Source: Acidobacteria bacterium RIFCSPLOWO2_12_FULL_68_19 (GTDB taxonomy: Bacteria > Acidobacteriota > Vicinamibacteria > Vicinamibacterales > UBA2999). From it: a stretch of DNA of 64,000 nucleotides. The notes beneath the pieces were generated by a model. It did no database searches. It was given only the letters and a program-made list of their open reading frames with translations, and was not told the DNA's origin. Positions within the stretch are counted from its first letter, which is position 1; each line of letters begins with the position of its first letter. Where the stretch lies: positions 19,779 to 83,778 of the forward strand of contig MELF01000017.1 of NCBI GenBank assembly GCA_001767525.1, in the 5' to 3' direction. Shown piece by piece: positions 11,736 to 56,984 of the stretch. The translations under genes and the position numbers were made by a program.

Positions 11736-11934
11736 GTGACAAGTGGACAAGTGGACAAGTGGAGAAGTGGAAAGAAGTAGAAAAGTACGTGTGAAGTACT
11801 GTCGTGTCGGTTCGGCGGCCGTCCGTAGGATCCGACCTGCCGTACTCTGCCACTTATTCTTCCTCTCTCTTTCCACTGTCCCACTCTTCCACTTTTCCAC
11901 TTGTCCACTTGTCCACTTTTCCACTTGTCCACTT
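11736..11934. repeat. Inverted arrays of an 8-bp tandem unit (AAGTGGAC / GTCCACTT)
   Basis: The left arm has four units of the type aagtggac (11741-11772). The right arm has eight units in the opposite orientation (11871-11934), alternating gtccactt and ttccactt. Between the arms is about 100 bp of non-repeated sequence. Transcribed or single-stranded, the arms could pair into a long hairpin. The element fills most of the only large gap (11716-11964) inside an otherwise tightly packed operon; no gene is visible in that gap. Confidence 0.85.
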
Positions 11935-52527: not shown

Positions 52528-52559
52528 CGTGAGCCGATTGAGGTGGGTTCCTGTTGTGG

Positions 52560-52574: not shown

Positions 52575-53300
52575 ATGGTACTCTGTGTCCGGCCAGTGGA
52601 GCGGTCTCACCAGCGCATCGTCGCCGTCACGGAAGTCGCCTTGTGCTCGAGCGTGCCGACGCAGATCCTGCTCGGCGCACTCCTGCGCCTCGGCGGGGTC
52701 GCGCCGATCGACGACACCGGCCAGTTGTCGCTCACGTTCGTGTTCACCCTCTCGGTCGCCGACACCGGACTGCTCATCGGCCTGATGACGGCGCTCACGT
52801 GGGTGCGCCGCGAGCGCGTGGCCGCCCTCTGGCTCGGCGGTCGGCCCGTCGGGCGCGAGGCGCGTCTGGGCGCTCTACTCGTACCGCTCGTCTTCCTCCT
52901 CGTCGTAGTCCTGCTGAACGTGCTGCACGTCGCAGCGCCATGGCTGCACAACGTCCCGACCAATCCGCTCGAGCAGCTGGCGGCGACGCCGGGTCGGGCC
53001 GCCGTCTTCGCGGTCGTGGCCGTCCTCGCGGGCGGCGTGCGGGAGGAACTCCAGCGGGCGTTCCTCCTCCAGCGGTTCGAACAGCATCTCGGCGGCGCAA
53101 CGGCCGGCGTGGTGCTCCTGAGCGCCGGATTCGGGGCGGGACACTTCGTGCAGGGGTGGGACGCGGTCGTCACGACGGCGCTGCTCGGCGCGTTCTGGGC
53201 GGTGCTCTACCTGTGGCGTCGGAGCAGCGTCGCGCCGCTCGTCTGCCACGCCGGGTTCAATACGCTCGAGGTGCTCCGGGTGGCGGCGTTCGGGGTATGA
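52575..53300 (+). CDS. CPBP family intramembrane metalloprotease
   Basis: A 241-aa membrane protein with 6-7 helices. The CPBP (Abi) motifs are present: REELQRAFLLQRFE (Glu-Glu), FGAGHFVQGWDA (His) and CHAGFN (His/Asn). These are the catalytic residues of the Rce1-like type II CAAX prenyl endopeptidase fold. Function in bacteria varies (toxin or bacteriocin immunity, processing); unknown here. The ATG at 52575 is preferred because a GTG at 52554 lies inside a REP-like palindrome. It ends overlapping the convergent SurA-N-like gene by 44 bp. Confidence 0.82.
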   Translation: MVLCVRPVERSHQRIVAVTEVALCSSVPTQILLGALLRLGGVAPIDDTGQLSLTFVFTLSVADTGLLIGLMTALTWVRRERVAALWLGGRPVGREARLGALLVPLVFLLVVVLLNVLHVAAPWLHNVPTNPLEQLAATPGRAAVFAVVAVLAGGVREELQRAFLLQRFEQHLGGATAGVVLLSAGFGAGHFVQGWDAVVTTALLGAFWAVLYLWRRSSVAPLVCHAGFNTLEVLRVAAFGV

Positions 53301-53889
53301 CGATGTCGGCGCGGCCGCGCAGGTCGCGCATCCACTGCGCGATGGTGGCGGCGCGCCGCTCGGCGCCCGCCCGCTCCCGGGCGAGATCGTCCGCGTCGAC
53401 AAACGGCATCAGCCGCCCGCCGCGGGTGAACTCCTCGGGGTGCATGCGGTAGTACTGCAGCACTTCTTCTTCCGCGAGCTGGACCGCCGACCCGAAGCGC
53501 TGATCGAGGTATGCCGCGATGCGCAGGTTGTCGCGCGCCATCTCGCGCAGGCGCGCGTCGTCGAGGCCGGTGGACTCCATGACAGCGGCCAGGCGCCCGC
53601 CGGTCCGCTCGCTGATCGCCGCGACTTCGCGCGCCACCGCCGCAGGCGACGGCTCCGGCGGCGCGAACCGCGCGACCTCCGCAAGCACGAGCTGCCGGTC
53701 GACGAGCCGCTCGACGGCGGTCTGCTCGGCCGCGCCCTCCGGCACCTCCACCAGGCCGAGCGCGACCGCCGCCGTCACGTCCGAGAGCGTGATGGCGAAC
53801 CCGTTGACGCGGGCGGCCACCCGATCGAGGAGCTGTTGCGCGCCCAGGGACGGCCCACACCCCATGAGCGTCGCGACAACCAGATACAT
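53257..53889 (-). CDS. SurA N-terminal-like exported chaperone
   Basis: A 210-aa exported protein (signal peptide about residues 1-20, MYLVVATLMGCGPSLGA) whose core matches the SurA/PpiC N-terminal chaperone region: VAARVNGFAITLSDV near the mature N-terminus, then the long helical ERLVDRQLVLAEVARFAP. The parvulin isomerase domain is absent, so it is chaperone-only or a shortened family member. It follows the TamA-like gene on the same strand after a hairpin repeat, consistent with outer-membrane protein assembly. The longer frame beginning upstream includes the repeat and is not used; the chosen ATG has GGAGGTG 11 bp upstream. Confidence 0.78.
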   Translation of the reverse strand: MYLVVATLMGCGPSLGAQQLLDRVAARVNGFAITLSDVTAAVALGLVEVPEGAAEQTAVERLVDRQLVLAEVARFAPPEPSPAAVAREVAAISERTGGRLAAVMESTGLDDARLREMARDNLRIAAYLDQRFGSAVQLAEEEVLQYYRMHPEEFTRGGRLMPFVDADDLARERAGAERRAATIAQWMRDLRGRADIVIPRTPPPGAPRAY

Positions 53890-53912
53890 CCAGCGCGGTT
53901 CACCTCCACGAC

Positions 53913-53986
53913 ACACCGAGACACCGAGACACCGAGACGTGCTGGTCTTGAAAGGAATTCGGCTCGGTGCCTCGGTGTCTCGGTGT
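53913..53986. repeat. Inverted arrays of an 8-bp tandem unit (ACACCGAG / CTCGGTGT)
   Basis: Three 8-bp units acaccgag (53913-53936) are followed by a 26-bp spacer and three units ctcggtgc/ctcggtgt (53963-53986) in reverse orientation, giving a 24-bp stem with one mismatch. The architecture repeats that at 11741-11934, with another 8-mer. It fills the spacer between the tamA-like and SurA-N-like genes. Confidence 0.88.
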
Positions 53987-54011
53987 TCCGTTGGGGCGAA
54001 GTGGGTCCTCA

Positions 54012-56984
54012 TCAGAACGCCTGCCCGAACGAGATGTGCAGCACGCTCCGCCGTTCGAGACGCCCCGGCGCCAGCTCGCGGCGATCCAGCTTGAACCCGA
54101 GATCCACCCGGATCGGCCCGATGGGCGAGCGGTAGAAGAAGCCGAATCCTGCCGCTGCCCGGAGCTTGCCGAGGTCGAGATCGGTTGCGCGCTGGAAGAC
54201 GTTGCCTGCGTCGAGGAACCCGACCGCGCCGAGCCCGCCGACGAGCGCGACGCGCAGCTCGCCGTTGAGGACGACCAGACCGTTGCCACCGGTCGGAAAC
54301 CCGGTCGGACTGATAGTGGCCTCGGTGCCGAGCCGGTCGAGCGAGAAGCCACGCACGGTCGTGTCGCCGCCGGCGAAGAACCGCTCGCTCGCGGGCAGAT
54401 CCTGCACGACGTCGACGATCGGGCGACCCTCCTCGTCGGAAATCGGCTGGCCGTTCGGAGCGATCCGCGGCACGGATCGGCGGAGGCCGTGCGCGGCGCC
54501 CAGGCGCGCCCCGAGCGCGACCACCGTCCGCCGCGCGGCCGGCAGCCGATGGTACGTGAACCCCTGCAGGAACGTCTTCACGAAGCCGACCTCGGACCCG
54601 ACCAGGCGCGCAGCCAGCTCGGTATCGGCGATGAGGAACGTTCCGCGGTCGGCGTCGATGATGTCGTTGCGGCTGTCGCGAATGAGCGACGCCGAGAACT
54701 TCGACAGGCGCACCTGCGGGAACACGCGGTCGATGAGCGGCTTCTCCGCGTCGGTGAAGCGTTCGTTGAAGAGCCGCGTATGCTCGTACGAATACCGTCC
54801 CGCGACGGTATACCGCGCGCCCAGACGCAGCCCCGCTTCGGCGCGCGCCTCACGCGTGATGAAATTGAAGCTCGAGCGGATTGCCTGGTCCAGGATGCCG
54901 GTCACCATCACGTCCGCCGGGCTGGCGAACGCCCTCGGCTCGCGATAGGTGGCCAGCACACGGTACTCGTTGAACCCGTAGTTCCCCTCGAAGGCGCGGT
55001 CGGCGCGCCCGCTGCCGTCGGCCACGATCGTGTCGCGCGCGCGCAGGCTGACGCGCGTGAACAGGTTGACGGCGCGGTTCTTGCCGCCGAGATTGCGGCG
55101 GCCGATCTGAAAGAACCCGCGCGGCGCCAGCTCGAACCGCTCCTCCGCCTGCCCGCTCTCGCCGGTCGGCCGCAGCCGCGTGCCTCCCTCGACGCCGCCG
55201 CCGTAATCGACCGTCGTCGGCGGCGCCTCCTCGACCTGCACGAGCACGTCGCGACGCGGCTCGCCCCCCTGTCCCAGCTCTTCGATCACGACGCGGCGAA
55301 AGAGGCCGAGGGCCGCCAGGCGCCGCTGACTCTCGATACGGGCCGACAAGCCGAGCGGCTGGCCCGGCGCGAGCAGGACCTCGCGCTCGATGATCTCCGT
55401 GCTGGTTCGCTCGTTGCCGACGATGATCACGTCGTCGACCAGCACCTGGACACCCTCGCGGATGTCGAAGCGGATGTCGGCGCGCGTGCCGTTGTCCGTG
55501 AACGACACGACCGGCTCGACGGCGACGCTCTCGTATCCGTGGTTGCGGTACTCGAGGTCGACGCGGTCGCGCGCGGTGGCGACGTCGATCTCCGAATAGG
55601 GCCGTCCGGCCGCCATGGTCATCAGCGCGTGCAGCTGTGCGTCCGACAGCACGCTGTTGCCCGCGAAGGCGAGCGATGAGACGACCGTCTGCGGCCCCTC
55701 GGCGATGACGAAGCGCACGGCAACCGGCCGATCGCCGCCACCCGGGGCGCCAAGCTCGGTCACCGCGATCTGCACGGCCGTCCGTGTGAAACCGCGCGCC
55801 CGGTAGGCGTCGCGGACGGCCGTCGCCGCGGCGGCGACGGAGGTCTGGACGTAGGGCTGTCCGCGCGCTACTTGCACGAGCCGCTGCAGATCGGGCAGCG
55901 GGATCGACGTGTTGCCGGCGATCTCGACGCTGTCAACGAGGTACCGAGCCCCCCGCGCGATCGTGAACGTGATGATGAGCGCCTCTTCGCGCTCGTCGCG
56001 AGCGTAGTCGACGTTGGCCTCGCGGTAGCCGCGGGCTTGCAGGTACGTCTCGATGGCGAAGGTGGCGTCCTCGAGCAGATCCTCGTCGGCGGACCCTTCC
56101 GCGCGCACCGGCACCAGCCGCTCGCGGTCGGCCTCGGGGAGCGGGTCGCCCGCGAATGCAATCGAGACGAGCGGGCCGCGATCGACGGTGACCCGGATCG
56201 TGGCGCTGCCGTCAGGTTCAAAGACCGCCGTGTGGACGGCGCGGGCCTCGTAGAAGCCGCGGGCGCGCTGCAACGCCGTGTAGCGGTCGAGCGCCTCGGC
56301 GATGGCCGCGTTGTCGTACGGGTCGCCGGCGCGGATGCCGATGTCGCCGCCCGTCACGCGCCCGTCGCCGGCGTCGAGGTTGTCCACCTCGATGCGCCCG
56401 ATGGCCGCGCGCCCGCCGGCGGCGACGTCGAACACCATCGTCGCGCGATCGGGCGCATGGGTTTCCTCGACGCGCGGGGCCACGCGCGCGGCCGGATAGC
56501 CTCGATCGCGATAGAGCGCCAGGAGCGCCTCGGCGACCTCCGCCGCCCGCCCCGCGGGCGGTGCGGCGCCGAAGCGCTCGGTGATGAGGCGGCGAATCTC
56601 GCGCTCGGGCAGGCCGAGCACGCCGCGCAGCTCGACGCGGTCCACCGGATGCAGCGGAAAGAGCACGTACCGCAGCCGGACGCCGCCGGCGGCGGGTTCC
56701 TGCAGCACCTGCACGTCCTCGAAGCGGTTGAGGCTCGTCAGGTGCGAGAGCGTCTCGCGCACCTCCTGCATCGACAACCGCTCGCCCGCTGTGGTTTCGA
56801 TGAGGCGGACAATCAGGCGGTCGTCCACGGGCCGCCCTTCCTGCTCGATACGCACCTCGGCGATGAGGGGGCCGGTCTGCGCAAACGCGGAGCCGACGCA
56901 GGTCGACACGCACAACGCCAGGCTCGAGAGCCGCAGCGCCCTGCTTGCTGCGTCCCGGGGCTCGAGTCTCGAGTCACCCGTCAT
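54012..56984 (-). CDS. BamA/TamA family outer-membrane protein
   Basis: A 990-aa protein with a signal peptide (about residues 18-38), a series of POTRA-like repeats (about 40-600; segments such as VDRVELRGVLGLPEREIRRLI and SLAFAGNSVLSDAQLHALM), and a C-terminal Omp85 barrel. The signature VRGFSLDRLG (about residue 880) is the RGF/Y-type motif, and the end is HISFGQAF with a terminal aromatic residue. It starts directly at the TamB-like stop (TGATG, 1-bp overlap), so it works with TamB. It is likely a TamA-type translocation/assembly component. Confidence 0.9.
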   Translation of the reverse strand: MTGDSRLEPRDAASRALRLSSLALCVSTCVGSAFAQTGPLIAEVRIEQEGRPVDDRLIVRLIETTAGERLSMQEVRETLSHLTSLNRFEDVQVLQEPAAGGVRLRYVLFPLHPVDRVELRGVLGLPEREIRRLITERFGAAPPAGRAAEVAEALLALYRDRGYPAARVAPRVEETHAPDRATMVFDVAAGGRAAIGRIEVDNLDAGDGRVTGGDIGIRAGDPYDNAAIAEALDRYTALQRARGFYEARAVHTAVFEPDGSATIRVTVDRGPLVSIAFAGDPLPEADRERLVPVRAEGSADEDLLEDATFAIETYLQARGYREANVDYARDEREEALIITFTIARGARYLVDSVEIAGNTSIPLPDLQRLVQVARGQPYVQTSVAAAATAVRDAYRARGFTRTAVQIAVTELGAPGGGDRPVAVRFVIAEGPQTVVSSLAFAGNSVLSDAQLHALMTMAAGRPYSEIDVATARDRVDLEYRNHGYESVAVEPVVSFTDNGTRADIRFDIREGVQVLVDDVIIVGNERTSTEIIEREVLLAPGQPLGLSARIESQRRLAALGLFRRVVIEELGQGGEPRRDVLVQVEEAPPTTVDYGGGVEGGTRLRPTGESGQAEERFELAPRGFFQIGRRNLGGKNRAVNLFTRVSLRARDTIVADGSGRADRAFEGNYGFNEYRVLATYREPRAFASPADVMVTGILDQAIRSSFNFITREARAEAGLRLGARYTVAGRYSYEHTRLFNERFTDAEKPLIDRVFPQVRLSKFSASLIRDSRNDIIDADRGTFLIADTELAARLVGSEVGFVKTFLQGFTYHRLPAARRTVVALGARLGAAHGLRRSVPRIAPNGQPISDEEGRPIVDVVQDLPASERFFAGGDTTVRGFSLDRLGTEATISPTGFPTGGNGLVVLNGELRVALVGGLGAVGFLDAGNVFQRATDLDLGKLRAAAGFGFFYRSPIGPIRVDLGFKLDRRELAPGRLERRSVLHISFGQAF

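What the first reader, a model, noticed from the sequence alone, without database searches (positions are those of the whole stretch)
53913..53986. Second inverted 8-bp tandem array with the same architecture but another unit
Three ACACCGAG units and three CTCGGTG(T/C) units face each other across 26 bp. Like the array at 11736-11934, the unit is exactly 8 bp and the arms are in opposite orientation. Two unrelated unit sequences with the same unit length and geometry suggest one mechanism that makes them, for example replication-linked or hairpin-guided expansion.
Basis: seen in the sequence. Interest (0 to 1): 0.6.

Follow-up and report, generated by a model that had tools for sequence, protein, structure and literature searches.

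The report
Widespread inverted octamer repeat between genes
The DNA between two outer-membrane-biogenesis genes holds a hairpin-shaped repeat of three 8-letter words on each side, one copy of a little-noticed repeat element that occurs with the same three-plus-three design in at least ten bacterial phyla and one archaeon and that comes and goes quickly between related species.

Summary
In detail: three ACACCGAG units face three CTCGGTG(C/T) units across 26 bp (53913-53986), inside a longer inverted repeat (53899-54000) that fills the gap between bamA and the next gene of its operon. It is far beyond chance and not local: it is one copy of a dispersed palindromic element (arm CCAC-N-GAG-R-CAC-N-GAG-R-CAC-N-GAG), about 12 strict copies in this genome, with the same geometry in at least ten bacterial phyla and an archaeon. 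86% of arms have exactly three units; loops are unrelated between copies. An unbiased scan of 1.23 Mb found 30 inverted tandem arrays, unit 7 (11) or 8 (15), a few 9/13/14, none in simulated sequence. Between sister species 7 of 12 sites differ (no array, or another word). Closest known: REPINs and the paired GGGAATC heptamers of Xanthomonas. Best explanation: a REPIN/MITE-like intergenic element moved or maintained by an unidentified factor; linkage to RAYT and IVP genes was tested and not found.

The parts
53899..54000 (.). whole palindromic element (inverted repeat, 41-nt arms, 20 nt between)
   Evidence: lies about 12 bp from the bamA stop codon and about 10 bp from the next start codon
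53913..53936 (+). left arm: three ACACCGAG octamers
53937..53962 (.). loop/spacer of 26 bp, not shared with other copies
53963..53986 (-). right arm: three octamers in opposite orientation (CTCGGTGC CTCGGTGT CTCGGTGT)
54012..56930 (-). bamA (POTRA + Omp85), upstream gene of the operon; stop codon 54012-54014 (5' end of the gene not determined)
   Evidence: Pfam POTRA E 1.9e-51, Omp85 E 3.6e-34
53257..53889 (-). downstream gene of the operon, SurA-like N-terminal region by eye, no Pfam match; its GGAGG ribosome-binding site lies in the base of the hairpin
11738..11934 (.). second inverted octamer array (GACAAGTG / CACTTGTC), same class, other word

Best explanation
It is one copy of a dispersed, non-coding, palindromic intergenic element of about 75-100 bp: three CACNGAGR octamers facing three inverted ones, closed outside by CCAC.../...GTGG and a subfamily-specific extension, with a loop of mostly 10-40 nt. 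It works like a REPIN or MITE: the two arms are the recognised and conserved part, and copies are spread in trans into gaps between genes, where they fill the gap, are lost, are split by other insertions or are replaced by arrays of another word. Shown: sequence, architecture, dispersal, breadth, fixed 3+3 unit number, turnover between sister species, nesting of other palindromes in the loop. Inferred: that a trans-acting enzyme moves or rebuilds the arms; that the element spreads between phyla; any effect on expression. The enzyme is not identified.
For: About 12 strict inverted copies in this genome and 0 for the reversed control; same architecture in Acidobacteriota, Verrucomicrobiota, Planctomycetota, Chloroflexota, Gemmatimonadota, Pseudomonadota, Desulfuromonadales, Myxococcota, Bacteroidota, Actinomycetota and an archaeon; 71 of 94 elements are 3+3 units, 161 of 188 arms have three; bases outside the arms covary between the two sides (position -2: 0.93 vs 0.47 expected); patchy among relatives, 11 of 59 genomes; presence, absence or replacement at orthologous sites; the sister copy at the same bamA site carries nested palindromes inside its loop; between genes in 28 of 35 placed cases although only about 12% of the sequence is non-coding (rough gene caller).
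Against: Loops of copies in one genome are unrelated, which plain copy-and-paste of the whole element would not give. No target-site duplication could be defined. No transposase is linked: 1 of 30 IVP loci and 0 of 30 Y1 transposase loci carry a real array; the single RAYT gene here is flanked by a different palindrome. Positions 4 and 8 of the unit do not pair preferentially.
Confidence: 0.5

Rival explanations
1. The hairpin is selected as an intercistronic RNA signal: it folds in the bamA-surA-like transcript, occludes the ribosome-binding site or stabilises the upstream mRNA, as REP elements in operons can.
For: RNA of the transcribed strand folds at -66 kcal/mol, z -6.1, 0 of 200 shuffles as good, with GGAGG in the stem base; several relatives keep an octamer hairpin and others another hairpin at the same site.
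Against: The transcribed strand is not the more stable one more often than chance (11 of 20); N positions mismatch freely; many relatives have no hairpin there (L274, L278, L280, L281); no terminator-like U tract.
Confidence: 0.2
2. Mutational product: tandem slippage plus hairpin template switching creates facing arrays of whatever short word is present.
For: Many different words of 7-8 nt share the geometry; heptamer arrays do differ in copy number.
Against: The same word recurs across phyla; unit number is fixed at three for the octamer family; neighbouring units in an arm are no more alike than other units of the same element.
Confidence: 0.12
3. Arrays of binding sites for a conserved DNA- or RNA-binding protein that reads CAC-N-GAG, with the free positions 4 and 8 typical of a binding motif.
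For: CAC and GAG blocks are invariant while positions 4 and 8 are free (invariance is partly imposed by the search pattern).
Against: Rapid loss between sister species; many words in one genome; strict pattern in only 11 of 59 relatives.
Confidence: 0.1
4. A telomerase-like reverse transcriptase adds octamers to both 3' ends at a break, which would give two facing arrays around an unrelated centre.
For: Geometry and unrelated loops; DRT10 reverse transcriptases make 9-nt tandem repeats (PMC12632851).
Against: One of the two reverse transcriptases of this genome is of the group II intron type and the other has the same YADDF context; presence of RVT_1 only weakly tracks the elements (7 of 11 vs 15 of 48 genomes, counted).
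Confidence: 0.05

Closest known systems
GGGAATC heptamer repeats of Xanthomonas (Rehm et al. 2015, PMC4692102)
   Same: Short words in tandem, intergenic, close to the 3' side of the upstream gene; 70-75 cases per genome of two arrays facing each other; mostly kept but partly lost between species
   Different: 7-mer, variable copy number (2-26), one word, discussed as G-quadruplexes; here 8-mer, three units per arm, many words and many phyla
REPINs / REP elements with RAYT transposases (PMC3116915)
   Same: Extragenic inverted pair of conserved arms around a variable spacer, hairpin, dispersed copies
   Different: Arms here are three octamers without the GTAG/CGTC tag; not linked to RAYT genes
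TAACTGA heptamer repeats of Beggiatoaceae, Cyanobacteria and Bacteroidetes (PMC4679880), and cyanobacterial STRR repeats (own knowledge)
   Same: Intergenic short-word arrays shared by distant phyla, mechanism unknown
   Different: Direct repeats, almost never inverted (one case), 7-mer
MITEs
   Same: Short palindromic non-autonomous insertions, nesting
   Different: No target-site duplication or parent transposon found; inner sequence not conserved

Membership tests
REPIN / REP | Extragenic, dispersed, two conserved inverted arms with a spacer, able to form a hairpin | tested here: met
REPIN / REP | Arm is one 20-40 nt imperfect palindrome tagged GTAG or CGTC | tested here: not met
   arms are three octamers; no such tag in the window element by reading
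REPIN / REP | Genomic linkage to a RAYT (Y1 transposase) gene | tested here: not met
   0 of 30 Y1 loci in element-bearing genomes carry a real array within 1.5 kb; own RAYT is flanked by GGGTCNGACCC pairs instead
MITE | Terminal inverted repeats | tested here: met
MITE | Target-site duplication at precise empty sites | tested here: inconclusive
   empty sites seen but flanks too diverged to align at base level
Intergenic heptamer/STRR simple sequence repeats | Unit of 7 nt in tandem with variable copy number | tested here: not met
   unit 8, 86% of arms have three units; 7-mer arrays coexist in the genome
Intrinsic transcription terminator | GC-rich stem followed by a U tract | tested here: not met
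Known structured RNA (Rfam 15) | Match at gathering score | tested here: not met
   0 matches in the window

The most novel reading that the evidence does not exclude
A single sequence-specific system, unknown and shared by bacteria and archaea, writes or recognises facing arrays of short words (exactly three octamers per arm in this family) around unrelated centres, so that the arms and not the whole element are what is copied.
Probability: 0.15. Interest if true: 0.85.

Novelty: new variant of a known kind. Interest (0 to 1): 0.55.

Why it matters
In this genome and its sister, gaps between genes are often filled by such facing short-word arrays, and the same kind turns up in loci from many other phyla, yet only single cases have been described. 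A fixed three-plus-three octamer palindrome shared by distant phyla, with identical arms but unrelated loops, is hard to explain by slippage or by simple transposition and gives a precise motif with which to look for the responsible enzyme or binding protein.

Tried and rejected
IVP (PF05635) genes as carriers, recalled from memory as a lead: 1 of 30 loci, about what chance would give. RAYT/Y1 transposase: no adjacency and no clear co-occurrence among relatives (9 of 11 genomes with elements, 33 of 48 without, counted). Reverse transcriptase: weak co-occurrence only, group II intron type. Phage carriage: only 6 of 2.9 million viral contigs have the strict pattern. RNA-strand selection: no sense bias. 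Pairing-driven covariation inside units: none specific to the paired units. Literature search for the word itself: no relevant paper.

Full report
Observation. The sequence reads as described: three ACACCGAG units (53913-53936), 26 bp, then CTCGGTGC CTCGGTGT CTCGGTGT (53963-53986) (TRF). The inverted repeat extends outward to 53899-54000 and ranks first in the window. On the transcribed (minus) strand it folds into a 24-bp stem plus an imperfect base, -66.1 kcal/mol, z -6.1. It sits between bamA (POTRA/Omp85; stop codon 54012-54014) and the next gene of the operon (start codon 53887-53889), that is, it makes up nearly the whole gap.

Is it more than chance, and is it alone? In 1.23 Mb of the same genome (29%, taken as stretches, plus the window) a scan for facing tandem arrays with no assumption about the word found 30, with unit lengths 8 (15), 7 (11), 13 (2), 9 (1), 14 (1), and none in 444 kb of Markov-3 sequence (an earlier scan with another method agrees). 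Words include CACNGAGR, GGAMAAGT and GGTGCGAS (8) and GTAGCCG/GTAGGTG, GAACCGA, TTGGGAG and CGGGATC (7). In loci from other phyla, fetched for the CACNGAG motif, arrays of other words again had unit 7 (6), 8 (3) or 9 (1), and in the sister species 7 (16), 8 (4), 9 (2).

Breadth of this family. Many are metagenome-assembled, so single assignments may be contamination, but isolates (Sorangium, Thiobacillus, Endozoicomonas, Bacteroides) are among them. Consensus: (A/G)CCAC-N-GAG-R-CAC-N-GAG-R-CAC-N-GAG, loop, inverse. Counting units loosely in 94 elements, 161 of 188 arms have exactly three and 71 elements are 3+3.

Anatomy. The base two positions outside the arms pairs across the element in 93% of cases against 47% after shuffling (85% vs 43% in a larger set); this could partly reflect genome-specific subfamilies. 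Inside the units, positions 4 and 8 show no pair-specific covariation: at position 4 paired units across the arms agree in 47%, unpaired ones in 50%, neighbours in 45%, units of other elements in 33%. The CAC and GAG blocks are invariant partly because the search pattern demands them. Loops of copies within one genome are unrelated, although arms can be identical letter for letter between copies and between sister species.

Turnover. At the orthologous bamA site of relatives the gap holds the octamer palindrome (own, L273, L277, L279, L287), the octamer arms with other sequence between them (L272, sister), other facing words (GTCAAAG in L275, TGCAAAAT in L284, CAAATCC in L294), other direct words (ATTGACG in L288) or nothing (L274, L278, L280, L281, L283, L289-L293). 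In the sister species the loop holds nested palindromes of other kinds. Of 12 sites comparable between the two sister species, 5 keep the word, 5 have no array and 2 have another array (one of the two, opposite L346, I recognised by eye as a heptamer-type palindrome although the script called it 'no array', so the script's own tally is 5 same, 1 other, 6 none). At the L073/L334 site the own species has a TTGGGAG heptamer pair where the sister has the octamer palindrome, with GGTGTTCCGTGG, which looks like the outer end of an octamer element, left beside it.

Linked genes. 23 of 24 tested element-bearing genomes have Y1 transposases and 19 of 24 have IVP genes, but neither lies next to the arrays. 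The single RAYT of this genome is flanked on both sides by GGGTCNGACCC palindromes that are also dispersed, which shows that the test would have seen such a linkage. Pattern hits in viral contigs are rare (6).

Function. No terminator or promoter signature, no Rfam family. The transcribed strand is not preferentially the more stable one (11 of 20). A rough gene caller places 28 of 35 elements between genes, mostly filling the gap, with no strong preference for gene orientation (the caller misjudged the window's own case, so these numbers are approximate).

Comparison. Facing heptamer arrays were described in Xanthomonas (PMC4692102: 70-75 pairs per genome), direct heptamers in Beggiatoaceae (PMC4679880), and inverted conserved arms around variable spacers in REPINs (PMC3116915). 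The present family has the architecture of a REPIN but neither its tag nor its RAYT linkage, so I do not file it as one; it is a new variant of a known kind. The octamer word itself was not found in the literature library, which lacks most subscription papers.

Mechanism. I favour a REPIN/MITE-like element whose arms are recognised in trans (0.5). The unrelated loops are the main difficulty: either loops diverge fast while arms are held by recognition, or the arms are added or converted without copying the loop. That second possibility is the most novel reading and is not excluded.

Noticed in passing
L043:1219-1869 (G000:C5:36744-37079); L085:16458 and 17245; window 52559: RAYT-type Y1 transposase gene flanked on both sides by GGGGTCAGACCC..GGGTCTGACCCC palindromes that are dispersed elsewhere (13 half-sites in the sample, one in the window at 52559): a classic REPIN-like system, separate from the octamer arrays.
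   Followed up: partly
L347:15410-15900: The sister species' bamA-surA gap holds palindromes nested in palindromes (octamer arms, then CACGAAG arms, then two other hairpins).
   Followed up: partly
L079:6341-6836, L095:12748-13080, L072:12622-12871: Large facing arrays of GGTGCGAS octamers, 200-330 bp.
   Followed up: no
L080:4790-5015, L093:15320-15521, L065:18878-19068: Facing arrays of GAACCGA/GAACCCG words bounded by GTTCACACTTCT / AGAAGTGTGAAC-like outer ends, which look like a defined element with conserved termini.
   Followed up: no
L084:202-1632 and L397: Two reverse transcriptase genes in the genome, at least one with a group II intron maturase domain.
   Followed up: partly
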